This document shows, one piece after another, positions 6,751 through 60,273 of a DNA stretch of 64,000 nucleotides. Position 1 is the first letter of the stretch. Each line of letters begins with the position of its first letter. Made by a program: the position numbers and the translations under genes. The notes below the pieces were generated by a model, which was given only the letters and a program-made list of their open reading frames with translations, made no database searches and had not been told where the DNA came from. The DNA lies in NCBI RefSeq assembly GCF_000018405.1, contig NC_009943.1:272417-336416 (forward strand), written 5' to 3'. Origin of the DNA: Desulfosudis oleivorans Hxd3. Lineage in GTDB: Bacteria; Desulfobacterota; Desulfobacteria; Desulfobacterales; Desulfosudaceae.

Positions 6751-6794
6751 ACCTTCCACCCCTTAAAATGTTTGATTTATTTGGCCTTGCATTT

Positions 6795-6922
6795 CGGTTG
6801 TTGTCGCGCTTGCTCCAGTCACCCAGGTGTTGATACCCAAGACAGTCCGGCCGGGACTTGTCGGTAAACAGGGCAAGCACGCGATTCTGGGTAACCCGCT
6901 CAGGGCGGAGTTGTTCGGTCAT
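6795..6922 (-). pseudogene. 5' remnant of a second hsdR
   Basis: From an ATG at 6922 the frame encodes an N-terminus nearly identical to the intact HsdR (shared [18 protein letters not shown], then GDWSKRDNN). By eye there are about five substitutions over the first 110 bp plus a more divergent start. Homology stops abruptly after about 43 codons at 6795. It follows the DUF262 gene ending at 7049, so it marks where hsdR originally followed that gene. Confidence 0.9.
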
Positions 6923-7048
6923 GGTTTCACCTGCCTATGGCACACCTTTTGTGGATCAACGCAACACGGCATACCTGCTTTGATCGGCTCCGACTTAGCA
7001 CTGGCCATCTCAAAGGAGCGAACAGGATGCTTGAATTCAGCCGCCACT

Positions 7049-11037: not shown

Positions 11038-12215
11038 ACCAGCCTCGTCTTTCCAGTTAAAAGTTCCTGCATCATGGCCTGTTTGATGTCTCTGGTTTTG
11101 TTGCGGCGCTGTTCCAGGGCGGCGATTTCGGCGTCCATGTCGGAGAGGACTTGGGCGATGGCGGTTTGTTCGGTGGGGGAGGGTAAAAAAATCTCGATAT
11201 TTTCGATAGTTTTTGCGTTTAAGCTGGGCACACCCGAAGCCTCGTTGTAAGTTCTCCAAGGGATTATAGAGAACTTGGAAAAAATGAACTTGGCGTTCGC
11301 TTCGGTAGAAATTTCCGTAAAAAACAACGTGTCCACCGTCCAAAAGGGAGAGTCCACATACTGTGGTGAATCAATCGTTCCTTTTCGCCCAATCAAAACA
11401 GAGGGCTTGTCGTAAATGCAGGTATTGGTTCGTCCAATTTCTCCACCGGATGCAAGAATCGGGTACTTCCCGTCAGACACAGAGATGCCGCGCTGACTCT
11501 TGCCGTGACGGACCATAAGTACATCCCCCAACCGTTTAATCTCCCACTCCCCCTTAAACCCCGGCAGGCGGGTTTGGCCGGTGAGGAGTTGCTGCATGGC
11601 GGCCTGTTTGAGGTCGCGCTTTTTGGCGATCAGCCGGTCGAGGCCATCCAGCAGGGCATCCACGTCGCTCAAGGCGGCAGCGATGGCGCGTTGTTCGGCT
11701 TCGGTATTTGGAATTGACAGAGGGCAAGAAAGGACGTCTTCCTTTCGGAGGTTCGTCTGTTTAGCACCATCATCAAATGTCAAATAGAACGGATTCCGGT
11801 CGAGTTTGTAATACAGAAGTTTGCCATCTATCCCACAAGGATTCAGGACACAAATACGCTGATTGACAGTGTAAGTATCTTCGCAATCTACCCAAAAACA
11901 TTTTGCAATGGCTCTTCCGTTTGGGACATCGCTCATCACCATGAGCACATCCCCTTTCTCCGCTGGGCAGAAACGCATTTGAGCAAATTTACGAATGATA
12001 CCTTCAGTTGAAATGAACTTGGAATTTACAACCACAAAATTGCCCGAATCCGTGATGCTTTGCTCGTGCGCCTTTCCGTTTGTGTATTTCACAACAAAAG
12101 CGAGAGGCTTAACTTCCCAATCCTCCGGAATCACCCCCACCTCGGTCTGTTTGTATCCCGGCGGAACCGATGGAGAATGGCGAGTTGAGAATTGAGAATT
12201 TTCTTTGCTTTTCAT
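11034..12215 (-). CDS. hsdS: Type I restriction enzyme, S (specificity) subunit
   Basis: A 393-residue HsdS with the usual two target-recognition halves. Each ends in a conserved helical spacer: QRAIAAALSDVDALLDGL and TEQTAIAQVLSDMDAEI, followed by QQLLTGQTRL and QELLTGKTRL respectively. It gives the DNA sequence specificity of the methylase and nuclease. The first ~20 residues (MKSKENSQFSTRHSP) are not HsdS sequence: they come from an inserted GAATGG repeat. True homology starts at GYKQTEVGVIPEDWEV. The ATG at 12215 overlaps the upstream stop as ATGA, and GGAGAATG inside the repeat probably serves as the ribosome site. Confidence 0.93.
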   Translation of the reverse strand: MKSKENSQFSTRHSPSVPPGYKQTEVGVIPEDWEVKPLAFVVKYTNGKAHEQSITDSGNFVVVNSKFISTEGIIRKFAQMRFCPAEKGDVLMVMSDVPNGRAIAKCFWVDCEDTYTVNQRICVLNPCGIDGKLLYYKLDRNPFYLTFDDGAKQTNLRKEDVLSCPLSIPNTEAEQRAIAAALSDVDALLDGLDRLIAKKRDLKQAAMQQLLTGQTRLPGFKGEWEIKRLGDVLMVRHGKSQRGISVSDGKYPILASGGEIGRTNTCIYDKPSVLIGRKGTIDSPQYVDSPFWTVDTLFFTEISTEANAKFIFSKFSIIPWRTYNEASGVPSLNAKTIENIEIFLPSPTEQTAIAQVLSDMDAEIAALEQRRNKTRDIKQAMMQELLTGKTRLV

Positions 12216-12250
12216 TCTCCATTCTCCATTTTCAATTCTCCATTCTCGCC
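12170..12250. repeat. GAATGG-type repeat pair spanning a stop/start junction
   Basis: Two arms in inverted orientation, one reading ATGGAGAATGGCGAGTTGAG and the other its complement (CATTCTCCATTCTCC), flank a TTTGCTTT centre. The right arm encodes the last residues of the ATPase (ENGELKMENGE) and the left arm the first residues of HsdS. The repeat thus carries the stop codon, the start codon and the probable ribosome site of the junction. Confidence 0.8.
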
Positions 12251-13363
12251 CGTCACCTCCCAGTGGCCTTCTTTTCTGCCACCCACGCGACAAAGAAAAC
12301 CATCGGTCTTCAATTTCTGAATATTCCTCTGGATAGAGCGTTCGGTAATGCCGATCAGTTCTGCCATTTCAGGTATGGTTATGGATGGATTTTCCCGACA
12401 GGCATCAAGAATCTTTCCCGACACTTTCCCGACGTTTTCCCGACGTTTTCCCGACGCTTCTGTTTCAGTTGGGGTTGCTTCTTCCACAGGAATCCGGCCT
12501 TTGAACATGACCATGAGACCAGTCGGCTCAAACCGAAAGGAGGGGAAATCCGTGCCGTTTTCCTCGCAGGCAGTGCGGACTTTTTCGATGCCGCGTCCCC
12601 AGGACTCGATATCGCCGGTGCGAAAAAAGGCGCCGGCAATGAGCGGATTGTGGGGTTTGGAGACATGGCGGGAAAGCAGATGCTCGACGGTAAAGTCCGG
12701 CGGAATGATGGCATCGTTGGCAATCCACAATTGATCCTCGTACACGCGAATCTGAATGGGCGCGCCGCTGCCGTAATCCCGATGCACCAGCGCGTTGAGG
12801 ATGAGCTCACGCAGGGCTTCGGGAGGAAAAAGAAATCGTTCCACCCGGGTGATGCCCTCGTAGCGGATATAAGCTTTCATGTATTTGGTCAGGAGCAGAT
12901 CGAGGGTTTTGCGGGCCTGATCAAAGAGGTTGCCCTGAACCTCATCCTGATAAATCAGATCGGCGTCGGTGCGGAAAAAGCCGATTTTCACATAGGCGCC
13001 GGTGATAAAACGTTCCGGGGTTTCGTGAAACAGCAGAACCGCCGCCCGGCGCAAATGGCCGCCTTCAATCAGATTCAGGTTTTCCAGAATGCGCCGCGGG
13101 CTGTCTTCCAGGACGCTCGCATCCATGCGACCGCTTTTGGCCGCAGCCCGTCGGAATTGTTTGAAGGCATTGGCATCCAGGTCCTCTTCTTTGGCATAGG
13201 GCGTCGGCACGCTGTCCCAATGCCGGCCCTGCTTGCGCAGCAGAAAGGTTTCCAGCGCCGCCCCTTTGAGCTGCTGTTTAGTGCTGCCGCTGCGATAATG
13301 ATATTCCCCTTTGTAGCTGATCGGGCTGGGATAAGGATTAACAATGGTCTGGGATTCTTTCAT
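12212..13363 (-). CDS. AlbA_2 (Schlafen-type) ATP-binding protein, N-terminally shortened
   Basis: A 383-residue protein of the AlbA_2/ATP-binding family often found in type I RM loci. SYKGEYHYRSGSTKQQLKG is the end of the AlbA_2 domain, followed by the ATPase-like region (PPEALRELILNALVHRDY, then GRGIEKVRTACEENG). The C-terminal winged helix (ENPSITIPEMAELIG) may bind DNA. The start overlaps the hsdM stop as ATGA, which removes roughly 80-90 residues of the usual AlbA_2 domain. The C-terminus ends in repeat-encoded ENGELKMENGE. It is either a shortened but translated variant or a decaying gene; the open frame and overlaps favour expression. Confidence 0.88.
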   Translation of the reverse strand: MKESQTIVNPYPSPISYKGEYHYRSGSTKQQLKGAALETFLLRKQGRHWDSVPTPYAKEEDLDANAFKQFRRAAAKSGRMDASVLEDSPRRILENLNLIEGGHLRRAAVLLFHETPERFITGAYVKIGFFRTDADLIYQDEVQGNLFDQARKTLDLLLTKYMKAYIRYEGITRVERFLFPPEALRELILNALVHRDYGSGAPIQIRVYEDQLWIANDAIIPPDFTVEHLLSRHVSKPHNPLIAGAFFRTGDIESWGRGIEKVRTACEENGTDFPSFRFEPTGLMVMFKGRIPVEEATPTETEASGKRRENVGKVSGKILDACRENPSITIPEMAELIGITERSIQRNIQKLKTDGFLCRVGGRKEGHWEVTGENGELKMENGE

Positions 13364-15786
13364 GGCTGATACCCCATTTTTTTCAGATGCGCATCAACCC
13401 GGCCGGAAAGGTCCGTCACTTCGTTCACCAGACGCGGCAGGGGCGTGGCGTAACGTTCGGCCAGCTGGCGAATGCGGGAGGTGAGGGTTTGCGAGACGCG
13501 ATCCAGTTCGCCCTGAACGGCCACGGCCAGGGTGGTCAGCCACTTGTCATCCACCACCAGTGTCTTGATTTCATCCTTGCTGAGCCGGGGGTATTTTTCA
13601 TAGGCCAACTTATCGAGCGCGGTATCGGCTTCCTTGATCTTGCTCTTGAGGCCGCTCTGTTGCTGTTCCAGCTTTGCCCACTGTTTTAGAATTTTTTCTT
13701 CGTCGGCATAGTCGGAATTGCCCTTGATCTCTTTTAAGCGCCTGTTGACCTCGCCCTTGTTGATCTTGTCCAGGTCGGCAAAAGCGCCCTCTTCACCGCC
13801 ATGTTCTTCTTCAAGCTCGGTGATCCGTGCAGTAACAGATTCCAGTTCACTTTGCAGGGCATCCAGCTCGGCCTGTTCCTTGGCAAAATAGCGGGCCACG
13901 ATATAGGGCTTGGGAATCAGGTCGCAGGCCCAGCCCTTGTCTTTCATCTCGCCCTTTTTTTTGCCGGCCTTGACCTCTTCCATGACGCGGTGGGGTTTGG
14001 CGACCCAGCCGTCGGCGGCAATCAGGTAACAGTCGTCCTGCATGGCCTCGGCCCAGTAGTCCATCAGGTGCTGGTAGACATCATAGGCGTCAAGCAGCGG
14101 GGCGCCGCGGAAGGCGGTCAACAGGTGTTCGGCAATGGCCTCGATCAGGGCTCTGGGGTGTCCTTTTTTGTCAAAGCCTTTCAGGGCCGGAGTGTTCGCC
14201 TTTTGCCACTTGTCAAAGATTTTTGTCACGGTCTTTTTAAAGGCCGTAAATTCGTCGTGACCCAGAATGGCTTGCTTCAATTGAGAATGGGGAATGGCGA
14301 GTTGCGCATAGCCGGGACGCAGGGGCTTAAAAAGCGCGGCGCGAACAGTGGGAAGAATTGCCCAGTAATCAGAAAGCGCGTCAATATCCCGGTCGGGAAT
14401 GCCCCCGCGCAGATGGCCGTCAATGTCCTGAATGTCTTCGGGTTCGGTGCCGTCGATGTAGCGCGGCAGATTGAGATTGTAGTCGTTTTTGGAATCAGCG
14501 ATCTCGTCAAAGGGCACCATGCGGGCATAGCGGGGCGTTTCGGCTTGCTTGCGGAAGGTATCGACAATTTTATGAATGTCCTGCTCGCGCAGGCGGTTCT
14601 TGTTGCCGTCCTTGATAAAGCCCCTGGAGGCGTCGATCATGAAAATGCCTTTGCGGGCCGTGGCGTTTTCCTTGTCCAGCACCAGGATGCAGGCCGGAAT
14701 GCCGGTGCCGTAAAACAGGTTGGCGGGCAGGCCGATGATGCCTTTCAGGTAGCCGGACCGGACAAGCCGCTTGCGGATGACGTTTTCCGCATTGCCGCGA
14801 AACAGCACGCCGTGCGGCAGAATGCAGGCCGCCTTGCCCGTGCTTTTCATCGAGCGGATAATGTGCAGCAGGTAAGCGTAATCGCCCTGCTTGGCCGGCG
14901 GCACCCCCCATTCAAAGCGCTGGTAGGGATCGTTTTCGGACGTGAGCCCGGTGCTCCAGGTTTTGTCAGAAAACGGGGGATTGGCGACCACAAAGTCATA
15001 GGTGCGCAGCTTTTCGCCGTCTTTGAATTTGGGAGAGGCCAGGGTGTTGCCATTGAGGATGTTGGCGGTTGGAAAGTCGTGCAGGATCATGTTCATGCGG
15101 GCCAGACCGGCGGTGGTCACGTCTTTTTCCTGCCCCTCAAGGGTAATGTGTTTGCCCGCCTCGGCCGCCACTTTCAACAGCAGCGACCCCGAGCCGCAGG
15201 TCGGGTCATAGGCCGTGGTGGAAGCAACGGCTTTTTGCGGCGAAATACCGATCACTTTGGCAATAATCCGGCTGACTTCCGAAGGCGTGTAGAATTGGCC
15301 CTTGCTTTTGCCGCTCTCCTGGGCAAAGTGGCGCATCAGGTATTCATAGGCATCGCCGAGAATATCGTCATGGTCGGCCCGGTTTTTGGAAAAATCCAGT
15401 TCCGGTTTCTGGAAGATGCTGATCAGGTTGGTCAGGCGATCCACCATGGCCTTGCCTTCGCCGAGCTTGTTGGGGTCGTTGAAGTCGGGAAAGTCGCTGC
15501 GGGCCAGGCGGGAGTTGCTGTCGATCAACGGCTGAATGATCTGGGTGTTGATCTTGTCGCCGATATCGCTCTTGCCCTTGAGCTTGACCATATCCTGAAA
15601 GCTTGCGCCCCTGGGGATGGTGACCGGCGGGGCGTAATCGTCGGAGGCGGCATATTTATCCGAGATGTATTTGATAAACAGCATGAACAGGACATAGTCT
15701 TTATACTGACTGGCATCCATGCCGCCGCGAAGCTCATCGCAGGAAGCCCAGAGTGAACTGTAAAGCTCCGATTTTTTAAGTGCCAC
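13360..15786 (-). CDS. hsdM: Type I restriction enzyme, M (N6-adenine methylase) subunit
   Basis: An 808-residue HsdM, longer than the common ~500. The SAM-binding motif YDPTCGSGS is near residue 193 and the catalytic NPPF near 267. The final ~250 residues are rich in heptad-like leucines and charged residues (coiled coil), an extension seen in one HsdM subgroup. The start is GTG at 15786, with AAGGAG about ten bases upstream. It is the promoter-proximal gene of the operon. A GAATGG repeat is inserted in frame at 14279-14304 (residues reading LAIPHSQLK). The enzyme methylates the HsdS target and is the core of the MTase and REase complexes. Confidence 0.95.
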   Translation of the reverse strand: MALKKSELYSSLWASCDELRGGMDASQYKDYVLFMLFIKYISDKYAASDDYAPPVTIPRGASFQDMVKLKGKSDIGDKINTQIIQPLIDSNSRLARSDFPDFNDPNKLGEGKAMVDRLTNLISIFQKPELDFSKNRADHDDILGDAYEYLMRHFAQESGKSKGQFYTPSEVSRIIAKVIGISPQKAVASTTAYDPTCGSGSLLLKVAAEAGKHITLEGQEKDVTTAGLARMNMILHDFPTANILNGNTLASPKFKDGEKLRTYDFVVANPPFSDKTWSTGLTSENDPYQRFEWGVPPAKQGDYAYLLHIIRSMKSTGKAACILPHGVLFRGNAENVIRKRLVRSGYLKGIIGLPANLFYGTGIPACILVLDKENATARKGIFMIDASRGFIKDGNKNRLREQDIHKIVDTFRKQAETPRYARMVPFDEIADSKNDYNLNLPRYIDGTEPEDIQDIDGHLRGGIPDRDIDALSDYWAILPTVRAALFKPLRPGYAQLAIPHSQLKQAILGHDEFTAFKKTVTKIFDKWQKANTPALKGFDKKGHPRALIEAIAEHLLTAFRGAPLLDAYDVYQHLMDYWAEAMQDDCYLIAADGWVAKPHRVMEEVKAGKKKGEMKDKGWACDLIPKPYIVARYFAKEQAELDALQSELESVTARITELEEEHGGEEGAFADLDKINKGEVNRRLKEIKGNSDYADEEKILKQWAKLEQQQSGLKSKIKEADTALDKLAYEKYPRLSKDEIKTLVVDDKWLTTLAVAVQGELDRVSQTLTSRIRQLAERYATPLPRLVNEVTDLSGRVDAHLKKMGYQP
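14279..14304. repeat. GAATGG-type repeat inside hsdM
   Basis: ATTGAGAATGGGGAATGGCG followed by AGTTGC lies in frame within hsdM and matches the copies at 6719-6750 and 12170-12250. It adds a few residues to HsdM without breaking the frame. Confidence 0.7.
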
Positions 15787-16312: not shown

Positions 16313-17314
16313 ATGCATCCGAATCTGTTTCACTTTGCCACATCCGAACTTTCACAGGATGCCGTTTTGTGCTGGCTGCTATCCTGGGCAGAAAACAACC
16401 ACAGGCAGCACTATCCACATCTGCATAAGGTGGCCAAAAATCTTTTAGACTCGATTTATCAACGTTCCGGGGCCAAAGCACCCGCGGCCTTCTCAAGTAT
16501 TGAGATACGAAAGCAAGACGGCGGCATTGATATTCTTTGCATCATAAATCATGAAATGGCCATCCTGATTGAAGATAAGGCTGGCATGAAGCAACACTCT
16601 GATCAACTGGCAAGATACAAAGAGTATGTATTCAAAAAGCTTGGTTTCGCTGCTGACAAGGTGATTCAAGTGTATATCCAGACAGGCGATCAAAGCGACT
16701 ACAGTGAAGTCGAAAAGCATGGGTATCAGGTTCTTAGACGACTGGACCTGCTTGATATTTTTGAAGATGAAGCCGGACTGGCGGCCAGGTCTCAAAGCGA
16801 TATTTTTCGTGATTTCAGCGATTATCTACGCCAGGAAGAAAACGAGGTACAGAGCTACCTTGTTTCCCCGCCATCCCAATGGTCCTGGAACGCCTGGAAA
16901 GGTTTTTACGCCGAGGTTCAGCAACAACTTCAGGATGGAAACTGGGATTATGTACCCAATCCAGCGGGTGGATTCCTCGGGTTTTGGTGGCATTTTGTTG
17001 GGACAGACGAATACGAGATCTATTTGCAACTTGAGCAGGAAAATCTTTGTTTCAAAATCTTTGTAGAGAATGCGGAAAAGCGGCGTCATCTTCGCCAACA
17101 CTGGTACGAGAAAATCATTTTAAAATGCTCGGAGCATGGGCTTAAAGCAAGGCGTCCAGGCCGTTTTGGCAACGGGCGATACATGACGGTTGCGATTATG
17201 GATCAAGATTATCGTGCAGTAGATGATAAGGGCATCATCAAAATGGCTGAAACCCTGAAAACACTTAAAGCGGCTCAGTCTGTTATGGATGGCTGTATGA
17301 TGGGGAAGAGATGA
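16313..17314 (+). CDS. PD-(D/E)XK nuclease superfamily protein
   Basis: A 333-residue protein resembling the PDDEXK_4 group: the N-terminal SELSQDAVLCWLLSWA is characteristic. The nuclease core has E64, D73 (GIDI) and E87-x-K89 (IEDK) in the right spacing. The C-terminal half resembles the associated beta-rich domain of unknown role. AAAGGAAAG precedes the ATG. The stop overlaps the next ATG as ATGA, coupling this nuclease to an FtsZ-like protein. It opens the island operon downstream of palindromes A1 and A2. A DNA nuclease function is inferred from the motif; its target and trigger are unknown. Confidence 0.85.
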   Translation: MHPNLFHFATSELSQDAVLCWLLSWAENNHRQHYPHLHKVAKNLLDSIYQRSGAKAPAAFSSIEIRKQDGGIDILCIINHEMAILIEDKAGMKQHSDQLARYKEYVFKKLGFAADKVIQVYIQTGDQSDYSEVEKHGYQVLRRLDLLDIFEDEAGLAARSQSDIFRDFSDYLRQEENEVQSYLVSPPSQWSWNAWKGFYAEVQQQLQDGNWDYVPNPAGGFLGFWWHFVGTDEYEIYLQLEQENLCFKIFVENAEKRRHLRQHWYEKIILKCSEHGLKARRPGRFGNGRYMTVAIMDQDYRAVDDKGIIKMAETLKTLKAAQSVMDGCMMGKR

Positions 17315-17859
17315 GCACCGGAATCGGGGAAACAGATTTTATGATTGCCGTTGCCGGGGGCGCGGGGATCAACTGCGCAAACCGCCTGATGGAAAGAAAG
17401 CTGAACCGGTCCTGGTTTATGGCGGTGGACACCGACGTGTCGGCTCTTGCCCGGTGCGCGGCCTTTCGAAAGATCACGGTAAACAGCCGGGAGACCGGGG
17501 CCGATTTTGAGCAGCGGGTGTCGCCCCTGCTTGGTCACCGGCGGCGGCTGTTTGTGATTGCGGGCCTTGGGGGCGAGGCCGGTTCCAGTTTTGCCCTGTG
17601 GCTTGCCGAATATGGCAGCAGGCGGCAGATGAGTGTGGAGTGCTTTGTGTTTCTGCCGTTTCTGTTTGAGGGCGCAAGAAATCAAAGGGCTGATGAAACA
17701 TTAGAAAAGCTGGAGCCGATTGTTTACCGGCTTCATGTGTTTAAAAACGATGACTTGAGAAACCGCAACTTAAACGCCATGACAATGACGCAGGTCTTTG
17801 ACGTGTTGCACGATGCGGTGTTTTGCAGGCTTGCCCCCTGTCTTGAACAAGGGGGCTGA
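17311..17859 (+). CDS. FtsZ/tubulin-like GTPase-domain protein A (short)
   Basis: A 182-residue protein matching only the N-terminal GTP-binding half of FtsZ. The T1-like loop is AVAGGAGINCANRL; the strand-turn AVDTDVSAL matches FtsZ AVNTDAQAL. The tubulin signature is degenerate: GLGGEAGSS (about residues 84-93) where FtsZ has GGGTGTG. FLPFLFEGARNQRADETLEKL aligns with the T5/H6 region. The protein ends in the helix equivalent to H7, before the catalytic T7 loop, so it has no activation domain. The start overlaps the nuclease stop (ATGA). It might bind nucleotide weakly or cap a filament; both are inferences. Confidence 0.82.
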   Translation: MSTGIGETDFMIAVAGGAGINCANRLMERKLNRSWFMAVDTDVSALARCAAFRKITVNSRETGADFEQRVSPLLGHRRRLFVIAGLGGEAGSSFALWLAEYGSRRQMSVECFVFLPFLFEGARNQRADETLEKLEPIVYRLHVFKNDDLRNRNLNAMTMTQVFDVLHDAVFCRLAPCLEQGG

Positions 17860-17916: not shown

Positions 17917-18474
17917 ATGAACGCCAGGCTTATTATCAACAACCGTGAAGTGCTGCTGGGGCACCGGCATCTGGAAGAATTTGTATTTACTTTGGATGAT
18001 GACCCGGCTATGCGGGAGATTTTTCATGAACTGGCCAAGTCCCCTTCCAGCGAAATCCGCAAGGATATTTCCGGAAACCAGTACCTGTCCGAAGAAACCC
18101 GCCGGCTCCTGATCGCCGATACCTCTCTGGAAGTCATGCGCGCCATTATTCTTTCTGATGAGGCCCAGGCACTCATGACCCAAAGCGATCTGGAACGATA
18201 CCTGGCCACCGGCGATGCCGAGATCCTGAGGGCACTGGCCATTAATTTAAAAGAGTTGGCGCGGAAGTATAAAGTGTGCGACTTAAACTGGCTCTGCGAA
18301 AACCTGATCCGCCATCCTGATCCGGCAACCCGCTACAACCTGGCGGCAAATATATACACGCCGGCCGCTTTTTTGAAAAAACTGGCTGGCGATGATGACG
18401 TTGATGTTGCCCGAAAAGCAGCGGAAACCCTGCGGGAAGTCGGCAACGGCTTTGATCCGGATGATGATGAATAG
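17917..18474 (+). CDS. Leucine-rich-repeat-variant / HEAT-like protein
   Basis: A 185-residue all-helical repeat protein preceded by a strong AAAGGAGG. Short units such as SEIRKDISGN, EETRRLLIAD, LEVMRAIILS, AEILRALAIN and PATRYNLAAN recur every ~20-25 residues, as in LRV/HEAT-like scaffolds. There is no catalytic motif. It sits between two FtsZ-like genes, and its end overlaps the next start by 8-14 bp, so it is probably an adaptor for them. That role is inferred from context only. Confidence 0.75.
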   Translation: MNARLIINNREVLLGHRHLEEFVFTLDDDPAMREIFHELAKSPSSEIRKDISGNQYLSEETRRLLIADTSLEVMRAIILSDEAQALMTQSDLERYLATGDAEILRALAINLKELARKYKVCDLNWLCENLIRHPDPATRYNLAANIYTPAAFLKKLAGDDDVDVARKAAETLREVGNGFDPDDDE

Positions 18475-19075
18475 GCCGACAATTGCAATCGTTGGTGTCG
18501 GCGGCGCGGGCCTGAATATGGTGAACTACCTGAAACGCACCGGCATCAATGACCCTGATAGAGCACAATATATTGCGGTGAACTGTGACCGGGAGTCATT
18601 AAGTCGCTGTGAGGCGGACATCCTTCTGCCCATCGGCGTAAAATCTTTTGATGGCCCTGGCGCCAAGGGAAATGTTCGCCTGGGCCGGGACTGCGCCATT
18701 GAAAGCCGGGATACCATCATGCCGGCACTGGAGGCCTTCCAACTGGTTTTTATTGTTGCCGGCCTTGGCGGCGGCACCGGTACCGGCGCCGCCATTGAAA
18801 TCGCACGAATGGGCAGGGACCTGGGCGCCATCACTGTGGCACTGGTCACACTGCCCTTTTCTTTTGAATCAAAAAAGCGAATGCAAAATGCCGAAAAGGG
18901 GCTGGCCGTCCTGGGCCAATTTACGGATGCGTTAATCGTCCTGCCCAACAACCGGCTTCGGCGGCTGGCGTCACTCCAACTTACCATAAAAGAACTGTTC
19001 GATTTGAGCAGTGAGCATATCCGCCAGGCCATCAGCGGTTTTATCCCGCTGTTGTATCAGGCAGAGGGATTATGA
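18467..19075 (+). CDS. FtsZ/tubulin-like GTPase-domain protein B (canonical G-box)
   Basis: A 202-residue FtsZ-like protein with an intact nucleotide site: T1 VGVGGAGLNMVNYL near the N-terminus, a T3-like GPGAKGNVRLGRD, the tubulin signature GLGGGTGTGAA at about residues 100-110, and T5/H6 LPFSFESKKRMQNAEKGL, close to FtsZ KPFNFEGKKRM. It ends within the H7-equivalent helix (HIRQAISGFIPLL), directly before the T7 loop, so it lacks the residues that hydrolyse GTP in the neighbouring subunit. Three ATGs (18461, 18464, 18467) overlap the previous gene; MNRPTIAIVG fits the fold best. It likely binds GTP but would need a T7 loop from another protein. Confidence 0.88.
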   Translation: MNRPTIAIVGVGGAGLNMVNYLKRTGINDPDRAQYIAVNCDRESLSRCEADILLPIGVKSFDGPGAKGNVRLGRDCAIESRDTIMPALEAFQLVFIVAGLGGGTGTGAAIEIARMGRDLGAITVALVTLPFSFESKKRMQNAEKGLAVLGQFTDALIVLPNNRLRRLASLQLTIKELFDLSSEHIRQAISGFIPLLYQAEGL

Positions 19076-19110
19076 ATAAAAGCCATAAGTCACTGAGAGA
19101 GGAAAGATGC

Positions 19111-19617
19111 ATGGAACAAACAAAAGTACTGGTGTATTTTAACCAGAAAAAAGGGGTATTCAGTGTTGAAACCCTTGAAGGCGAAAATAAAGGGAGGGTT
19201 ATTGCCCACGTTCAAAAAATAACGCTCACGGAGTGCAGGTTCAGCAAAAATAAAGACAAAACAGCCGGTATAATCGGCATGTGGCAGGAACGGTTCAGGG
19301 ATATGGATCCGTCAAGGGCTGTGGGCCACTATTTTGAGGCCGAAGAAGACGCAGACGGGTTTTCACCTGTTTATTATGGTGAACTATTTAAGTATGATTC
19401 CAGGTCTGAACGGTATATTGTAGATGATGATGGCGATTTCATGGCCTTCTCTCACGAGACGAGCCAGGAACTCCAGAACGACCCGAATTTTGAACAGGCA
19501 ACCCTTGACAAACCGGCCCTGGTCTGTATGGATCTATGGGAGGACGAAGACCCGAAGGCAGAGGATGTAAGGGGGATCGCCTATTATTGGCGAAAAAAAA
19601 GCAAAAAACTTTCATGA
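19111..19617 (+). CDS. Uncharacterised island protein
   Basis: 168 residues if started at 19111, where GAGAGGAAAG is well spaced. An earlier ATG at 19072 overlaps the upstream stop as ATGA and would add 13 residues. The N-terminal part (GRVIAHVQKITLTECRF) resembles short phage- and plasmid-borne proteins of unknown function. The rest is acidic, and the last residues are very basic (WRKKSKKLS). No catalytic motif, membrane segment or signal peptide is visible. It is co-oriented with, and coupled to, FtsZ-like B. Confidence 0.7.
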   Translation: MEQTKVLVYFNQKKGVFSVETLEGENKGRVIAHVQKITLTECRFSKNKDKTAGIIGMWQERFRDMDPSRAVGHYFEAEEDADGFSPVYYGELFKYDSRSERYIVDDDGDFMAFSHETSQELQNDPNFEQATLDKPALVCMDLWEDEDPKAEDVRGIAYYWRKKSKKLS

Positions 19618-19672: not shown

Positions 19673-20095
19673 ATGTCTGAAAAAGATACAATTACCGGCG
19701 TTAAGCCCTGTCCGTTTTGCGGGCAAGCGGATATATCTGTGCGTTCAGAGACCATCCCTGTTCTCGGGGGGACTGGGGATCTGCAGGAAGTAACTATATA
19801 TCAGGTGTGCTGCAAGACCTGTAACGCCGAAGGCCCCTCCCTCATGGTAAAAACAACCGCAAAGCACGCCGAATCTGAAGCCGCAGTCCTTGAACAGTGG
19901 AACCAACGCCTCGGGCGGCACAAGGATGCACCTCCCAATCTTAAAAACTGCCCCTTCTGCGGGGAACAGCCGGAAGTGCTTCGCGACCCTGAACCTGCAC
20001 CCATACTCGTTGAAATCTTCTGCTCCGACTGCGGCGCCACAGGCCCGGCAAATGATAAAGACGATCTGATGGTGCTCTGGAATAAACGAGCGTGA
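19673..20095 (+). CDS. Tandem Lar-like zinc-ribbon protein
   Basis: A 140-residue protein made of two copies of the Lar (restriction alleviation) zinc-ribbon fold. Copy 1: KPCPFCGQ, then CCKTCNAEGP, ending LEQWNQRLG. Copy 2: KNCPFCGEQ, then CSDCGATGP, ending LWNKRA. Phage Lar proteins modulate type I restriction, but a single copy is usual. The same doublet is fused to the C-terminus of the DnaE protein encoded at 23250-26903. GAGGGGGG precedes the ATG, and the stop overlaps the next start (GTGA). A DNA- or protein-binding role within the island is inferred. Confidence 0.82.
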   Translation: MSEKDTITGVKPCPFCGQADISVRSETIPVLGGTGDLQEVTIYQVCCKTCNAEGPSLMVKTTAKHAESEAAVLEQWNQRLGRHKDAPPNLKNCPFCGEQPEVLRDPEPAPILVEIFCSDCGATGPANDKDDLMVLWNKRA

Positions 20096-20727
20096 CTGAC
20101 ACCATTATGGAATATAAAATTCAAGCAGATCCCGAACAACTGCAACCCTGGCCGGCTTTAAAGAAAAAACTCAGCACCAGCGCCCCGGAAATACCTGGGG
20201 GTGGATTCAGGCAATCCCGACGGGTCCAGGGGATGATAGATTGCCACAGCCTGGCAAGGGGCTACAGCCAGCTCTTTATTTATATACAAAAGGGGTTGGG
20301 TGCGTATGCGGTAGAAATATCGAAAATGATCAAAACAATTTATTCCATTAAAGACAGTGATATAAGGCTCCGGCTTTACCTGGCCGCATTTGGCGACCCG
20401 GAGTTGACCGTCCACCCCCGGCCATACACGACCTACGGGTACAAAACAGCAACAAGGACAATAGTGGAAAACTTGGCCGGTGAGGGCATAAAAACGCCTT
20501 GCCTCCTGGATACCCTGGATATGAATCCTTATTTAAAAGCCGGGCAATACAGAAGGGCTGACAGGGGCTTGATCATCATTTTTGCAAGTGCGTTGGAAGA
20601 TGTGCGGTTTTCAGAAACAGCCATGGAAAAACTGTCGAGGCAGAAAAACAGCTATATAGTGGCGGTAAGCGGAGAAGAGGTTAAGGGTGCATTGTTGCGG
20701 CAACCAAATTTTGAACAGGAGGGTTAA
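20092..20727 (+). CDS. Uncharacterised island protein
   Basis: 211 residues from a GTG at 20092 that overlaps the previous stop; an ATG at 20107 is the alternative. Alternating hydrophobic strands (SQLFIYIQKGL, RADRGLIIIFASAL, SYIVAVSGEEV) suggest an alpha/beta fold, possibly a degenerate von Willebrand A-like domain, but no metal-binding motif is visible, so I do not assign it. It is in the middle of the island operon, with the next gene starting 1 bp after its stop. Confidence 0.68.
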   Translation: MTDTIMEYKIQADPEQLQPWPALKKKLSTSAPEIPGGGFRQSRRVQGMIDCHSLARGYSQLFIYIQKGLGAYAVEISKMIKTIYSIKDSDIRLRLYLAAFGDPELTVHPRPYTTYGYKTATRTIVENLAGEGIKTPCLLDTLDMNPYLKAGQYRRADRGLIIIFASALEDVRFSETAMEKLSRQKNSYIVAVSGEEVKGALLRQPNFEQEG

Positions 20728-20728
20728 C

Positions 20729-21697
20729 ATGCAAACTTTAGTTCGAGACGTAGAAAAATTATGGAACGGCAAGAAAGCTTCCTTTGAGCAAAGGATCGCT
20801 GGTTGGGTAAATGACGTTAATAAAAACAAAGCAAAGACGGAAGAAGCAAGAAAGAGGTTTCACCAGTGGGACCCTCTCCGAGTGTACACGAGTGTATCAA
20901 GAATAAAAAATGCTCCGGCTTACTTTTCGCTCCGTTTCTTTGGGCAGGAAGTAGCAGTGATTCAGGCAAATGGGAAACAAGCGGTCCAGCTTAGCATTGA
21001 GCCAAAGCATGTAAACTGGACCGAAAGAGACTTTGATAAAAATTTTCGTTCTAAGTTTAATGCAGGTAAAATCCCATGGGATAGTGCACGCGCAAAGCGT
21101 TTTAGAGAACTATTCAAGGCAATTAAAAATCCGACGCCACATTCTCGTGAGCACCTTGTTGAGACAGAGATTATAAATAGCATGAAAAAGTTTCCGAGTA
21201 AGTCAGGAATTTCTAATATTCAACCCGTTTTCTTTGCAGATTGCCCTCTCCAGGTCCCTCTCCCAATAAAAGGTTCTTCAGGTGTTCCTGAGGAGAGTCG
21301 TGGTGGAAATATGGACATACTGGCTCGAAGAGGAAAAGGTGGAAGAAATGCAAGGCTTTCTGTGTGGGAATTGAAAAAACCGGGTATGCCAAACGCTGCT
21401 CTAATAAAAGCTATCAAGCAGAGTATTATATATGCGAGTACTCTCAGAATGGTGTTGCGTTCACAGTCAGGGCCAGAATGGTATAAGCTATTTGGCTTTA
21501 ATGGTCGTCTTCCTAAAAATTTAAAAATTGAGGCTGTTCTAACAATCGCCCATAAAGATAAAGATGAATTTGAGCAGGCCAAAAAGACACTTTCACCATG
21601 GACACCATTATGCATGGGCAACGACTCTATTCTTCCACATGTTGCCTACTACAATGACGCGACGTACAAGGTCCAACAAATCATACCCATTAATTAA
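20729..21697 (+). CDS. Second PD-(D/E)XK nuclease-like protein
   Basis: A 322-residue protein with AGGAGGG just before the ATG at 20729; a longer open frame begins at 20687 but lacks a site. The nuclease-like core has E145/E147 (VETEI), D196 (GGNMDILARR) and E214-x-K216 (VWELKKPG), the PD-(D/E)XK pattern. The C-terminal region contains the strand EAVLTIAH typical of such folds. It is distinctly more AT-rich than the flanking genes, so it may have joined the island separately. It shares no obvious similarity with the first island nuclease beyond the fold motif. Confidence 0.78.
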   Translation: MQTLVRDVEKLWNGKKASFEQRIAGWVNDVNKNKAKTEEARKRFHQWDPLRVYTSVSRIKNAPAYFSLRFFGQEVAVIQANGKQAVQLSIEPKHVNWTERDFDKNFRSKFNAGKIPWDSARAKRFRELFKAIKNPTPHSREHLVETEIINSMKKFPSKSGISNIQPVFFADCPLQVPLPIKGSSGVPEESRGGNMDILARRGKGGRNARLSVWELKKPGMPNAALIKAIKQSIIYASTLRMVLRSQSGPEWYKLFGFNGRLPKNLKIEAVLTIAHKDKDEFEQAKKTLSPWTPLCMGNDSILPHVAYYNDATYKVQQIIPIN

Positions 21698-23249: not shown

Positions 23250-26200
23250 ATGACGACCGTCCCAGATCAATTTGTCCATCTTCATGTTCACACCTGCTAC
23301 AGCCTGCTGGACGGGATAATTCGCCCGGACGATCTGGTTGCGCGGGCCGTTGAATACAAGATGCCGGCCGTGGCCATCACCGACCACGGCACCATGTTCG
23401 GCGTTATTCAATTTTACATGGAAGCCGTCAGGGCGGGCATTAAACCCATAATCGGCTGTGAATGCTATGTGGCGCCGCGGACCATCGCCGACAAAACACC
23501 GGCAGACCACGCCGGCCTGTCCCATCTTGTTTTGCTGGCCGAAACCATGGAAGGCTATCGCAACCTCTGCCGGTTGGCCACTATCGCCCAGCAGGACGGT
23601 TTTTTTCACAAACCCCGGATTGATAAAGCATTGCTACAAAAACACGCCAAAGGCCTGATCGGTCTGTCTGCCTGCCTGAAAGGAGAAATACCCCACCTGA
23701 TCTGCAGGGGCAGGCAGGACGAAGCCGATGCCGCGGCACGGCAGTATTGCGATATGCTGGGGGACAGAAATTTTTTTCTGGAAGTCCAGAACAACGGCCT
23801 GCCCGAACAGGAAACGGTCAACAACGCCCTGCTGGACATGAGCCGGCGACTTTCCATCCCCCTGGTGGGCACCAATGACTGTCATTACCTGGACCCTGAA
23901 GACAGCCGTGCCCACGAGATTGCCTTATGTCTTCAGACAGGCCAGACCATCCACGATACCGACCGGCTTAAGTTTGATACCAACCAGCTCAACTTCAAGT
24001 CCACCGGGGAGATGTGCGTTTTTCTGGAGCCCTTTCCCAGGGCCGCGGCCAACACCGTAGCCATTGCAGAGCGGTGCCAGGTGGCCTTTGACTTCAGCGC
24101 CCGGCATTTTCCCGTGCTTGAAACACCACCGGGCAAGACCATGGCTGACATGCTTGAAGATAGCGCCATGGCCGGCCTGAAAAAACGATGGCAGCACATT
24201 TGCAAGCAGAGCAGCCACGCCGATAAATCGGTTTATCAACAGCGGTTAGCGTATGAGCTGGCTGTAATCAATGAGATGGGGGCCCCCGGCTACTTTCTGA
24301 TCATAGCCGATTTTATTGCGTATGCTAAAAACAACGGTATCCTCACCGGCCCGGGCCGGGGATCTGCGCCCGGCAGCCTGGTCTGTTACTGCCTGGGCAT
24401 CACCGGTGTTGATCCCATCGAGCACGGTCTGCTGTTTGAACGGTTTTTGAACCCGGAACGAAACGTCATGCCGGATATCGACGTGGACATCTGCATTAAC
24501 GGCCGGGAAAAAATACACCAATATCTGATGGACAAATACAACCGGGATGACGGGGAGGACTATGCGGCCTGTATCGCAACTTTAGGCACCATGAGAAGCA
24601 GGGCCGCTCTCCGGGAGGTGGGTCGGGCGCTGATTATGCCGTTGGACGACGTGAACAAAGTCGCAAAGCTGATACCGCCTGGCGCCAGAAGTCTGGACGA
24701 CGCCCTGAAAAAAGAGCCGGCCTTGAGGGCACTGATCGATTCAAAACCAGAGTTTGGTGAGCTGATGGACGTCATCCGGAAGCTGGAAGGGTTGCCGTTC
24801 CATATTCTTATGAACGCCGCCGGGATTGTCTTGAGCGATAAACCGTTGACCTGTTACACGCCCTTATATCGTTTTAAAGGTGAAATGATAACCCAGCTTG
24901 ACGCCCGGTCGTTGGAAACCATGGGGTTGGCCAGGCTGGACCTGCTGGGCATGAGGGACCTGACGGTTATCAGCGATACCTTGCAACTGATAAAGAACCA
25001 GGGCCGGCAAACGCCGGACCTTTCCCGGATAGACACCACGGACGCCGCCACCTGTCAGCTTCTGTCCAAAGGAGACACTTTCGGTGTGTTTCAGCTTGCA
25101 AGCACCGGCATGAAAGAGCTGCTGGTAAAAGCCCGGCCGCGATCGCTGTCTGAAGTTGCCGTGCTGATCGCCCTGTATCGTCCAGGCCTTTTGGAAAATG
25201 GCATGGTTGCAGATTACCTTGGAAGAAAACAAGGCCTGAAAGACACAACTTATCCCACGGCGAAACTGGAACCGATTTTAAAAGAGACCTGTGGCCTGCC
25301 GGTCTATCAGGAGCAGATCATGCAGGCGGTCCAGGTGCTGGCAGGCTACACGCCGGGACAATCCGACGATTTTCGCAAGGCGATGGGAAAAAGGATAGCC
25401 GAAAAAATTGCAGATCACCGCCAACGGTTTATTAACGGCGCCGCCGCCAAAGGCATTGACAAAGCCACGGCGTTGCAACTGTTTGAACAACTCGAATACT
25501 TTGGCGCCTATGGATTCAACAAAGCCCACAGCATCGCCTATGCCTTCATTGCCTGGCAGATGGCATGTCTCAAAGCGCACTTTCCAGCTGAATTCATGGC
25601 GGTGTGGCTGGACATAAGTTTCGGGTGTGTAGACAGGATCGCCCGCTTAATTGGTGAATGCCGCGACAGCAACATCCCTGTCCTGCCGCCGGATGTCAAT
25701 CAAAGTGCCAGACAATTTACAGTGGTCAACGGGCAGATACGATGCGGTCTGGCATGCGTCAAGAAAACAGACAAAGGACTGATAGACGCAATTATTGCCG
25801 AGCGCACCGCCGCCGGTCCATTTGTATCCCTGTCTGATTTCTGTAACCGCATGTCGGCCGGGCGTCCGGAACTACTGCAGGATAGAAAAGCTCTTGAAAA
25901 CCTGGTCAAAGCCGGTGCGTTTGACAGCACCGGCGCCACCCGGTCGCAAATGATGGCAGTTCTTGATGAGATTTTGAAGCCGTCACTCGATCTACAACAG
26001 CCCCGAAAGCCGGCTGTCCCGGCTCTGCCGGAGGTCGGCGAATGGTCCCCACACCTTCGGCGGGCCCTTGAAAAAAGGGCGATGGGAATCTGTTTAACCC
26101 CGGCGCCCCCGGCATATTGTCATGCAAAATTGAAGCGCCCGACTACTACCCCCCTGTGCTCCATTTACGAAAATCCTCAAGGCGGCCGGGTCGCTGTCGA

Positions 26201-26903
26201 TGGTATCTGGAAAGCGGTTGAGTATAAGCAGGGCAAAGATGGGTGTCCCATGGCCCTGGCGGAGCTGGAAGACAACAATGCGGCAATCGAAGTCGTCATT
26301 CCGGCTGAAATTTACGAGTCTGCCCGGCACGCCTTGCTGCCGGGCAGGCCGGTCATCGTGGAAGGTCGCTATGAATGTGATGAAGTTAGAATAAGTCCAT
26401 TGCAGGCTGAGCGGATAATCCCGTTGACCGATATTACTTTTCCCGGGCTGCCGCAGGGCAAAAAAGAAGACTTGCCCCGCAGCCTGGCATGTCCTTTTTG
26501 CGGCCACGCCCAGACATGGCTGCGCATGGAATATGCACCGCCAGAAGATTTAAAAACAAGCACGGACATGGAAATTGCATGTCAACTGCGTTGTGGGTAC
26601 TGCCGGGCTGTCGGTCCCGTTACTACCGTAGGAATAACCGCTGACCGTGTGCAGGTTGAAATCGCCGCCATCGGCCAATGGAACCAACGTGCCGGTCATG
26701 GAACAGATGATACCCGGAAGCTGAAGCCCTGTGCTTTTTGCGGCCATCATCCCCCCGACATAGAATATGTAATTGATCCTGATCCCCTCGAAGAAATAGA
26801 GACCGGGGTAATCAACCAGATTACCTGTCCGCAATGCGGCGCTGCCGTCCATTCCATGTGCTTTTGCGACCCATGTCTGACAAAGTGGAACCTGAGACAA
26901 TAA
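23250..26903 (+). CDS. dnaE: Accessory DNA polymerase III alpha (DnaE-type) fused to two Lar-like zinc ribbons
   Basis: A 1217-residue C-family polymerase. The PHP domain is intact (HLHVHT at 10-15, TDHG near 50, GCECY), so proofreading is possible. Palm motifs are GPGRGSAPGS near 368 and the catalytic PDIDVD at about 408-413. YGFNKAHSIAYAF near 752 marks the polymerase fingers, and an OB-fold is at about 980-1065. The polymerase alone is ~1070 residues, near DnaE2/ImuC length, with no tau-binding tail. The last ~140 residues are two Lar-like domains (ACPFCGH...WNQRA, then PCAFCGH...KWNLRQ), a fusion I do not know from standard DnaE. AAAGGAG precedes the ATG. No imuA/imuB is present in the window. 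Confidence 0.93.
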   Translation: MTTVPDQFVHLHVHTCYSLLDGIIRPDDLVARAVEYKMPAVAITDHGTMFGVIQFYMEAVRAGIKPIIGCECYVAPRTIADKTPADHAGLSHLVLLAETMEGYRNLCRLATIAQQDGFFHKPRIDKALLQKHAKGLIGLSACLKGEIPHLICRGRQDEADAAARQYCDMLGDRNFFLEVQNNGLPEQETVNNALLDMSRRLSIPLVGTNDCHYLDPEDSRAHEIALCLQTGQTIHDTDRLKFDTNQLNFKSTGEMCVFLEPFPRAAANTVAIAERCQVAFDFSARHFPVLETPPGKTMADMLEDSAMAGLKKRWQHICKQSSHADKSVYQQRLAYELAVINEMGAPGYFLIIADFIAYAKNNGILTGPGRGSAPGSLVCYCLGITGVDPIEHGLLFERFLNPERNVMPDIDVDICINGREKIHQYLMDKYNRDDGEDYAACIATLGTMRSRAALREVGRALIMPLDDVNKVAKLIPPGARSLDDALKKEPALRALIDSKPEFGELMDVIRKLEGLPFHILMNAAGIVLSDKPLTCYTPLYRFKGEMITQLDARSLETMGLARLDLLGMRDLTVISDTLQLIKNQGRQTPDLSRIDTTDAATCQLLSKGDTFGVFQLASTGMKELLVKARPRSLSEVAVLIALYRPGLLENGMVADYLGRKQGLKDTTYPTAKLEPILKETCGLPVYQEQIMQAVQVLAGYTPGQSDDFRKAMGKRIAEKIADHRQRFINGAAAKGIDKATALQLFEQLEYFGAYGFNKAHSIAYAFIAWQMACLKAHFPAEFMAVWLDISFGCVDRIARLIGECRDSNIPVLPPDVNQSARQFTVVNGQIRCGLACVKKTDKGLIDAIIAERTAAGPFVSLSDFCNRMSAGRPELLQDRKALENLVKAGAFDSTGATRSQMMAVLDEILKPSLDLQQPRKPAVPALPEVGEWSPHLRRALEKRAMGICLTPAPPAYCHAKLKRPTTTPLCSIYENPQGGRVAVDGIWKAVEYKQGKDGCPMALAELEDNNAAIEVVIPAEIYESARHALLPGRPVIVEGRYECDEVRISPLQAERIIPLTDITFPGLPQGKKEDLPRSLACPFCGHAQTWLRMEYAPPEDLKTSTDMEIACQLRCGYCRAVGPVTTVGITADRVQVEIAAIGQWNQRAGHGTDDTRKLKPCAFCGHHPPDIEYVIDPDPLEEIETGVINQITCPQCGAAVHSMCFCDPCLTKWNLRQ

Positions 26904-26995: not shown

Positions 26996-27964
26996 ATGAC
27001 CACAACCCGAACTATAAGTCGCTGCGACTTTCTTCTGAACGCTCTGGCCGCATGCGCCGGAACCGTTCTCCCATTGTCGTTATCTGCACCCTCGCCGACC
27101 GACTCGCTGGCGCCATCGCCCCGGCCCATAGAAATAAAAAGGCTTGCTCCTATGACTCATCCTGATGATTCTTTCAAAACAACAGTCTTCTGCATGGGCA
27201 GACCCGGCCTGTATGCTGTTTCACGGATGGTCCACCGGTTCGGCCACATCGACCGCAACGTGGACTACCTCTTTGTGGACACGCACGACACAGAAGACAC
27301 CAACCTGTATCTGCCGGAAGCAACCCGCACCCTTCTCACAGATTTGTTGGCCGAAAGCCACCTGGCACTCATTGTCGCCGACACGGAAAGGGGTATACCC
27401 GAAGCACTGCGCACTCAATTTGCCGAATGGCGCAGACAATCTTCCAACATGACCGTAACCTTTTGCCTGGCCCCGGCCGCGCCGGCAAATGCCCGGCAAC
27501 CTGTATGGACCCGGCAGCCAAACGACGTCATTGTGAACGTCCCCGCAACACCAGCCGACACAACCGCATTAATGCCGTACGCGATTTTTGGCCTCTGTCA
27601 CCCGGTCTATTATCCGGGGCTTGTGGGCCTTGATCTTGACGACATCAAAACCGTTTTAAGCCGTACAGGGGGCATACGATTTGGCATGGCTACCGCGGTC
27701 GGCGAAAATCGCCCGGCAACAGCCATGCGGAAGGCGCTGAAGCAAGTCTATGCCGGCATTCCCCCGTCCGCCGTGCAAACAGGGCTCCTCGCCTTCATCA
27801 CAACCAACGACGAAGATGATCTCTCCTTCGAAGATCTGACAGAGGCCGCGGACCTGCTGCACGAAGCCCTTCGCCCTTTTGATAATGCGGAGTATACCTG
27901 GGCGCACCGCGTGACGCCCAGCGTGAAAAAAGGCGAGGTGCTGGTCACGGTTTATGCCGGATAA
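26996..27964 (+). CDS. FtsZ-like protein C: T7 loop kept, GTP signature lost
   Basis: A 322-residue FtsZ-like protein of full two-domain length. The region equivalent to GGGTGTG reads VADTERGIPEAL, so the nucleotide-binding signature is gone. The second domain is clear: PGLVGLDLDDIKTVL (about residues 207-221) matches FtsZ PGLMNVDFADVRTVM, the T7 loop with its catalytic aspartates. VGENRPATAMRKAL matches the next FtsZ segment. The N-terminus ISRCDFLLNALAACAG resembles a Tat signal with one arginine replaced by cysteine; if real, it would anchor or export the protein. An internal ATG at 27152 would remove it. It is complementary to FtsZ-like A and B. Confidence 0.8.
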   Translation: MTTTRTISRCDFLLNALAACAGTVLPLSLSAPSPTDSLAPSPRPIEIKRLAPMTHPDDSFKTTVFCMGRPGLYAVSRMVHRFGHIDRNVDYLFVDTHDTEDTNLYLPEATRTLLTDLLAESHLALIVADTERGIPEALRTQFAEWRRQSSNMTVTFCLAPAAPANARQPVWTRQPNDVIVNVPATPADTTALMPYAIFGLCHPVYYPGLVGLDLDDIKTVLSRTGGIRFGMATAVGENRPATAMRKALKQVYAGIPPSAVQTGLLAFITTNDEDDLSFEDLTEAADLLHEALRPFDNAEYTWAHRVTPSVKKGEVLVTVYAG

Positions 27965-53724: not shown

Positions 53725-53750
53725 CATCCCCATCATCAACCCACGCATGA

Positions 53751-53786: not shown

Positions 53787-53810
53787 GTTTTCAAACAGAA
53801 AGGAAATGTC

Positions 53811-60185: not shown

Positions 60186-60273
<88 letters not shown>

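What the first reader, a model, noticed from the sequence alone, without database searches (positions are those of the whole stretch)
23250..26903. DnaE polymerase fused to two Lar-like zinc ribbons
The last ~140 residues of this polymerase are two CPFCGH-type ribbons each ending in W-N-[QL]-R. The same doublet is a separate gene at 19673. Lar proteins act on type I restriction in phages. A polymerase carrying them could recruit to, or shield from, a restriction complex. The PHP metal residues are intact and the tau-binding tail is absent.
Basis: partly seen in the sequence, partly recalled or inferred. Interest (0 to 1): 0.8.

Follow-up and report, generated by a model that had tools for sequence, protein, structure and literature searches.

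The report
Spare DNA polymerase with zinc tail
A bacterium carries a second copy of its replication polymerase that has lost the parts that plug it into the replication machine and gained a zinc-ribbon tail, in a gene cluster that looks like anti-phage defence; the fusion was noted in print in 2013 without a function, and what the protein does is still untested.

Summary
In detail: ORF 23250-26903 is a complete DnaE1-type polymerase with two Lar-like ribbons at its C-terminus, and ORF 19673-20095 is the same doublet alone. The fusion is not new: Timinskas et al. 2013 (PMC3919608) report a second DnaE1 copy in Desulfococcus oleovorans whose C-terminal domain is replaced by a Lar-related domain, evidently this gene. 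New here: (1) the polymerase is a family-specific duplicate of the host's DnaE1 (55% identical), not a phage enzyme; (2) it lost the clamp-binding motif as well as the tau-binding domain but keeps its catalytic and PHP residues; (3) the tail resembles the neighbouring doublet ribbon by ribbon; (4) a same-family genome has two sister copies cut near residue 788, PHP ligands changed, one with two of three catalytic aspartates lost; (5) these polymerases sit with FtsZ paralogues, nucleases or a HEAT-repeat gene, and elsewhere in the order that HEAT gene sits with truncated DnaB paralogues and WYL regulators. My preferred reading is a bait or decoy module for phage proteins that target replication and division; an active tethered polymerase is nearly as likely.

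The parts
23250..26903 (+). accessory DnaE1 paralogue with C-terminal Lar doublet (1217 aa)
23277..23792 (+). PHP domain; motifs HLHVHT, TDHG, GCECY, LSHL, SACLKGE, TNDCHY as in the own DnaE1
24150..24950 (+). polymerase core with PDIDVD and LARLDLLG catalytic aspartates
26010..26018 (+). site where the clamp-binding motif of the own DnaE1 (QMSLF) is deleted (about aa 922)
26484..26693 (+). first Lar ribbon (aa 1079-1148)
26730..26900 (+). second Lar-like ribbon (aa 1161-1217)
19673..20095 (+). standalone Lar doublet, the only relative of the polymerase tail found in 96 genomes
17917..18474 (+). HEAT-repeat protein, marker of the module in other genomes
17311..17859 (+). degenerate FtsZ/tubulin-like protein (Tubulin E 4.7e-10)
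18392..19075 (+). FtsZ GTPase domain alone (Tubulin E 8e-37); the true start is probably later, as the ORF overlaps the HEAT gene
26996..27964 (+). divergent FtsZ-like protein with a Tat-like leader (row of alignment A2); no Pfam match on its own
19072..19617 (+). mycobacteriophage L5 gp82-like protein
20092..20727 (+). unknown protein, no Pfam match at E 0.01
20687..21697 (+). conserved partner, no Pfam match at E 0.01; looks like a PD-(D/E)XK nuclease by eye; 54% identical copy beside the accessory DnaE of G002 contig 7
21709..23034 (+). metallo-beta-lactamase/RMMBL hydrolase; 67% identical copy beside the accessory DnaE of G002 contig 7
16313..17314 (+). PDDEXK_4 nuclease; matches PADLOC candidate family PDC-S26
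1594..15786 (-). type I restriction-modification system with three GmrSD-type genes: HsdR 1594-4716, HsdS 11034-12293, HsdM 13360-15786
44025..49941 (+). second type I restriction-modification system: HsdM, HsdS, HsdR

Best explanation
Supported by sequence: a paralogue of the host's own DnaE1, most likely arisen in the ancestor of this bacterial family, cut off from the replisome (no clamp motif, no tau domain), whose C-terminal domain was replaced by what looks like a duplicate of the Lar doublet encoded 3.2 kb upstream. It belongs to a small accessory DnaE group whose neighbours include a HEAT-repeat protein, FtsZ paralogues and nuclease-like genes. Inferred: the module is anti-phage, and the DnaE, DnaB and FtsZ paralogues are baits or decoys for phage proteins that bind the host's replication and division proteins; binding titrates the phage protein or trips a neighbouring nuclease or HEAT effector. 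The Lar ribbons would add a second bait or an anchor, for DNA or for the type I restriction complexes.
For: 55% identity to the own DnaE1 over aa 4-1061, against at most 39.8% for the listed phage rows and 39.4% for the listed plasmid rows. The three accessory copies form one clade, support 100/99 and 100/98, with 12 residues shared by all three and by none of 30 DnaE1s; 500 random triplets share 0.05 on average, 2 at most. The G002 contig 7 copy lost two of three catalytic Asp, and both G002 copies have changed PHP ligands, yet their frames stay open for 794 and 814 codons, so their kept role is not ordinary DNA synthesis, at least for contig 7. In two further genomes the same HEAT gene sits beside a DnaB C-domain paralogue without the N-domain and a Tat-leader FtsZ-like gene. 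WYL/WCX regulators lie at the HEAT gene in five genomes; BrxR-type WYL regulators often co-localise with defence systems (PMC9122601, abstract seen). The neighbouring PDDEXK_4 gene matches a PADLOC candidate family.
Against: The window copy keeps the catalytic and PHP residues checked, which a pure bait would not need. No defence activity is shown, and HEAT, FtsZ-like genes and DnaE-Lar match no PADLOC model at E 0.001. Long branches make the tree less sure, and over aa 64-535 the window copy is nearer in identity to DnaE1s (62-64%) than to its sisters (49-50%). The HEAT loci are few, 8 strong ones among 389 genomes, and three of the eight have no FtsZ-like and four no DnaE or DnaB neighbour in what was seen. 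No enrichment test was made.
Confidence: 0.33

Rival explanations
1. Active specialised polymerase: a distributive DnaE that fills gaps or ends made by the neighbouring nucleases, held on DNA by its zinc ribbons instead of the clamp.
For: Catalytic and PHP residues intact; HhH and the OB-like region retained; metallo-beta-lactamase and nuclease-like partners conserved with the accessory DnaE in G002 contig 7; the Lar profile also picks up, below its cut-off, a DnaG-type zinc ribbon, so such ribbons may touch DNA.
Against: The sister copy beside the same two partners lost two catalytic Asp.
Confidence: 0.3
2. One reading: the Lar tail recruits the polymerase to, or shields newly made DNA from, the type I restriction enzymes in the same region.
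For: Two type I systems in the window, one directly beside the cluster; phage lambda Ral, a restriction alleviation protein, turns M.EcoKI into a de novo methyltransferase (PMC3874165, passages seen).
Against: Sister polymerases in similar clusters have no Lar tail. That Lar itself alleviates restriction is recalled for one E. coli prophage protein; no call here tested or showed it, and PMC3874165 does not name Lar.
Confidence: 0.13
3. Replication gene of a mobile element (phage or plasmid relic) that captured the host lineage's DnaE1 and FtsZ.
For: The gp82-like and Lar genes have phage relatives; many phages and plasmids carry DnaE; a tyrosine integrase stands by a tRNA-Met gene in the right part of the window.
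Against: No structural or packaging gene among the cluster genes scanned; tail, metallo-beta-lactamase and HEAT gene gave no relative in viral contigs; the integrase is 32 kb away.
Confidence: 0.13
4. A decaying duplicate with no function.
For: Many residues invariant in DnaE1 are changed: 56 of 288 up to aa 785, against 21 in the own DnaE1.
Against: Open frame of 1217 codons at 45% divergence, catalytic residues kept, neighbours conserved in G002.
Confidence: 0.06

Closest known systems
Second DnaE1 copy of Desulfococcus oleovorans with Lar replacing the CTD (Timinskas et al. 2013, PMC3919608)
   Different: In what was seen of the paper (passages; sections 14 and 17) there is nothing on the doublet next door, on the lost clamp motif of this copy, on sister copies, gene context or function. 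Its supplements were not read.
DnaE1 replicative polymerase
   Same: Domains PHP, Pol3, finger, HhH and an OB-like region; closest relatives are DnaE1s of the same family.
   Different: No clamp-binding motif, no tau-binding CTD, extra copy.
DnaE2 (ImuC)
   Same: Accessory DnaE without CTD.
   Different: The own DnaE2-like gene is elsewhere, 31% identical, behind genes that look LexA-like and Y-family by eye.
DnaEX with uracil DNA glycosylase in place of OB and CTD (same paper)
   Same: Extra DnaE whose C-terminus was replaced by another domain.
   Different: Different domain and hosts.
Lar restriction alleviation family (PF14354, TIGR03655)
   Same: Profile match above both curated cut-offs.
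   Different: Fused to a polymerase and doubled; function not tested.

Membership tests
DnaE1 (C-family DNA polymerase) | PHP, Pol3 and HhH domains | tested here: met
   Pfam matches
DnaE1 (C-family DNA polymerase) | three catalytic aspartates | tested here: met
   PDIDVD and LARLDLLG aligned with DnaE1s
DnaE1 (C-family DNA polymerase) | clamp-binding motif (QxxLF type) | tested here: not met
   absent from the C-terminal part (only QDGFF at aa 115); 30 of 30 DnaE1s compared have it after aa 850
DnaE1 (C-family DNA polymerase) | tau-binding CTD | tested here: not met
   the match to DnaE1 ends at aa 1061 and Lar ribbons follow; so it is a DnaE1 paralogue, not a replicative DnaE1
DnaE1 (C-family DNA polymerase) | groups with DnaE1 in a tree | tested here: met
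   next to the family's DnaE1s among DnaE1s of the order; DnaE2 and DnaE3 were not put in the tree
DnaE2 | closest to DnaE2 in sequence | tested here: not met
   31% to the own DnaE2-like gene, 55% to the own DnaE1
DnaE3 | closest to DnaE3 in sequence | not tested
   no DnaE3 was compared as such
Lar (PF14354) | profile score over the curated cut-off | tested here: met
   45.6 bits against 28.6, 45.9 against 39.6; Pfam reports the first ribbon only
Lar (PF14354) | zinc binding | not testable with these tools
   the cysteine pairs are present
Lar (PF14354) | alleviation of type I restriction | not testable with these tools
   needs an assay
Known anti-phage defence system (PADLOC, 2023) | core genes match PADLOC models | tested here: not met
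   HEAT, three FtsZ-like genes and DnaE-Lar: no match at E 0.001; ORF 20687 and the metallo-beta-lactamase: none. Type I restriction genes and PDDEXK_4 do match; the standalone Lar doublet has a weak match to candidate PDC-M14A, E 2.5e-4

The most novel reading that the evidence does not exclude
A defence module made of altered copies of host replication and division proteins (DnaE1, DnaB, FtsZ) that serve as bait for phage proteins aimed at the real ones, with a HEAT-repeat adaptor and swappable nuclease partners; DnaE-Lar is the version that also carries a bait or anchor for the restriction conflict.
Probability: 0.22. Interest if true: 0.85.

Novelty: new variant of a known kind. Interest (0 to 1): 0.5.

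Why it matters
The fusion itself has been in print since 2013, so it scores little alone. What would matter is the pattern around it: replication and division paralogues that have lost their contacts with the real machines, kept as long open frames beside nuclease-like genes and restriction systems. If they are bait, bacteria would have a general way to sense attack on the replisome and the divisome, and the host proteins that phages of these bacteria attack could be read off the paralogues.

Tried and rejected
Phage origin of the polymerase: rejected; the listed phage rows (40 of 1,372 records) are at most 39.8% identical, best segments in viral contigs at most 36%, own DnaE1 55%.

Other DnaE-Lar fusions: none found. 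Tail against 95 other genomes of relatives: 0 of 95. Pattern scan of genome contigs: 45 stretches, none a relative. Viral contigs: 2 stretches, none a relative. Phages at E up to 10: 13 records, best E 0.5, none annotated as DnaE, two of them without annotation. Plasmids: 2 records, E 2 or worse. These need close likeness to this tail. PF14354 in 395 genomes of the phylum: 70 with a match, 6 over the cut-off, of which only the own genome has it in a polymerase-size frame; one weak match in a 1018-aa frame proved to be a DnaG-type zinc ribbon; the other sub-threshold matches, several in frames of about 700-900 aa, were not examined. Of the 48 viral loci, 11 frames of 600 aa or more passed a crude DnaE pattern and none had a CPxCG pair near its end.

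G001 as a third accessory copy: rejected; it is a DnaE1 cut by the contig end with stops inside, about 74% to the family's DnaE1s over the longest piece.

Structure models: the FtsZ-like 26996 model is poor (pLDDT 42) and was not searched. The tail model (pLDDT 71) has no Foldseek match at E 0.001 or better; VIA-align best Z 6.3 in a mixed list with double-stranded RNA-binding domains; uninformative.

Solved structures by sequence: tail best E 0.61, doublet best E 0.32, both unrelated proteins. Paper searches for a described module with DnaE, DnaB or FtsZ paralogues in defence islands: searches found no paper; in the listings (3 papers each; 12 of 1,640 listed; 12 of 49 listed) I saw none on it; only listings were looked at. 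In PMC12707154 only passages were seen. Alignment A3 had a badly placed row and was not used. The shuffled z-scores are less clear than the raw scores: tail 2 with ribbon 2 has z 5.4, tail 1 with ribbon 2 has 5.7.
Full report
What is there. The ORF at 23250-26903 encodes 1217 residues without a stop. Pfam finds PHP, polymerase core, finger and HhH domains, and a Lar domain at 1079-1148 with E 8.3e-12; NCBIfam's Lar model also passes its cut-off. Two ribbons start at residues 1081 and 1161 and end WNQR and WNLR. Only the first is a significant Pfam hit. The ORF at 19673-20095 is a Lar doublet with E 5.5e-30. By raw alignment score, tail ribbon 1 goes with doublet ribbon 1 (112, against 46 for the cross pair) and tail ribbon 2 with doublet ribbon 2 (63 against 28); the shuffled z-scores favour the first pair clearly (8.4) but do not set the second pair apart (5.4 against 5.7 for tail 1 with ribbon 2). 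The doublet was the only relative of the tail found in 96 genomes searched. So the tail is most simply a copy of the neighbouring doublet taken as a unit.

Already in print. Timinskas et al. 2013 (PMC3919608; passages, sections 14 and 17 read) state that a second DnaE1 copy of Desulfococcus oleovorans has its CTD replaced by a Lar-related domain. The fusion is thus known, without function.

Where the polymerase comes from. The genome has three DnaE genes. The window copy is 55% identical to the own chromosomal DnaE1 over aa 4-1061, and 56% to the DnaE1 of G002, a genome of the same family; the own DnaE2-like gene is 31%. G002 has two more DnaE frames, on contigs 8 and 7, matching up to aa 788. 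The family holds three genomes here; the third, G001, shows only a DnaE1 cut by a contig end. In a tree of 33 rows the three accessory copies lie together (100/99) and next to the family's two DnaE1s, apart from 28 other DnaE1s of the order (the program warns of long branches). On 17 of those rows (12 of the 28 others) and aa 6-785, a tree that groups the window copy with the family's DnaE1s is rejected (AU p 0.007), and one with the own DnaE1 alone too (p 0.009); the groups were chosen after seeing the first tree. Independently of tree models, 12 residues are shared by all three accessory copies and by none of 30 DnaE1s (500 random triplets: mean 0.05, maximum 2), and 6 are shared by the accessories and the family's two DnaE1s only (0 for 500 random pairs). 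Against this: over aa 64-535 the window copy is 62-64% identical to the DnaE1s but 49-50% to its sisters, which fits fast evolution of the sisters but also independent duplications.

What was lost. In the alignment with DnaE1s the clamp-binding motif (QMSLF in the own DnaE1) is deleted and the C-terminal domain is replaced. A QxxLF-type motif after aa 850 occurs in 30 of 30 DnaE1s and not in the window copy. The six PHP motifs looked at and the catalytic aspartates are intact in the window copy. In the contig 8 copy PHP ligands are changed and the catalytic aspartates kept; in the contig 7 copy PHP ligands and two of three catalytic aspartates are changed. Of 288 columns invariant in the 28 DnaE1s up to aa 785, the window copy breaks 56, contig 8 88, contig 7 98, and the two family DnaE1s 21 each. 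Both G002 copies have no Pfam domain after the finger domain.

The gene cluster. Around the polymerase lie a PDDEXK_4 nuclease, two FtsZ-related genes and a HEAT-repeat gene, a gp82-like gene, an unknown gene, a conserved gene that looks like a nuclease by eye, a metallo-beta-lactamase and, behind the polymerase, an FtsZ-like gene with a Tat-like leader. Five such Tat-leader proteins aligned as a profile match the own FtsZ with 98.5% probability over the C-terminal half; singly they give sub-threshold or no Pfam matches. In G002, contig 8 has HEAT, Tat-leader FtsZ-like and DnaE in a row; contig 7 has DnaE with the 54% identical nuclease-like gene and the 67% identical metallo-beta-lactamase, a gene like PDDEXK_4 by eye, and a double AAA ATPase. 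A 57% identical copy of that ATPase lies about 3.5 kb left of the window in the own genome, next to a WYL/WCX regulator that is 43% identical to the one at the HEAT gene of G652. A type I restriction system stands directly left of the cluster; a second lies about 16 kb to its right, beyond ordinary genes. PADLOC: the PDDEXK_4 gene matches candidate family PDC-S26; HEAT, FtsZ-like genes and DnaE-Lar match nothing; the ATPase resembles IetA and other AAA proteins.

The HEAT gene elsewhere. It matches in 12 of 389 genomes of the order at E 0.001 and, with the 8-row profile at E 1e-10, in 1 of 395 of the phylum, the own one; no relative in viral contigs. Of the 8 genomes with E below 1e-30, 5 have FtsZ-related neighbours (window, G002, G652, G677, G726) and 4 have a replisome paralogue: DnaE in the window and G002 (found through DnaE, so not independent) and a DnaB C-terminal domain in G652 and G726; the other four (G752, G677, G605, G583) showed none in the stretches seen, some of which end near the gene. 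The G726 DnaB paralogue is 51% identical to its host's full-length DnaB; both paralogues lack the N-terminal domain, the LRESG motif of the four host DnaBs is lost in both, and the Walker lysine is kept. At the HEAT gene a WCX domain above its cut-off was found in G652, G677, G726, G605 and G752, with WYL above its cut-off in three of the five (G652, G726, G752); in G583 such a gene is seen only by eye and in two pieces. In G752 the Tat-leader neighbour is a non-specific endonuclease instead. No enrichment test against random loci was made.

Reading. The firm part is a non-replisomal DnaE1 paralogue in a defence-like island. The step to bait or decoy is inference: it explains the shared loss of partner contacts, the sister copy with lost catalytic residues, and the choice of proteins (DnaE, DnaB, FtsZ, which from general knowledge are phage targets). 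The intact active sites of the window copy speak for a working polymerase, which I rate nearly as high. The Lar tail was found in this copy only; whether it touches restriction complexes, DNA or phage proteins is open.

Noticed in passing
L256:3016-4014, L259:8577-9470, L255:3435-4310, L216:8749-9906, window 26996-27964: FtsZ-like proteins with a Tat-type leader (SRRxF in most) near a HEAT gene; an FtsZ relative with an export signal is odd, and in L254:7592-8338 the same kind of leader stands before a non-specific endonuclease.
   Followed up: partly
L256:4119-5027 and L259:7533-8420: DnaB C-terminal domain paralogues without N-domain, beside the HEAT and FtsZ-like genes.
   Followed up: partly
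L220:5743-11440 (genome C1, left of the window): Genes that look LexA-like and Y-family by eye, then the DnaE2-like gene: probably a normal SOS mutagenesis cassette close to the island.
   Followed up: no
window 52999-60273: Rad52-like and PDDEXK_1 genes and a tyrosine integrase next to tRNA-Met: perhaps a separate integrated element.
   Followed up: no
window 29747-31366: ADP-ribosylglycohydrolase fused to a dual-specificity phosphatase-like domain.
   Followed up: no
window 4703-11343: Three GmrSD-type genes inside a type I restriction gene cluster.
   Followed up: no
L230, L231, L232: The nuclease-like gene (ORF 20687 type, in two pieces in L232) and the metallo-beta-lactamase (21709 type) occur as a pair in three other genomes of the order, with no DnaE match in the stretches fetched.
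   Followed up: partly
L222 (G078) and long frames in G008, G024, G034, G043: DnaE1 genes that seem split or lengthened by inserts, perhaps inteins.
   Followed up: no
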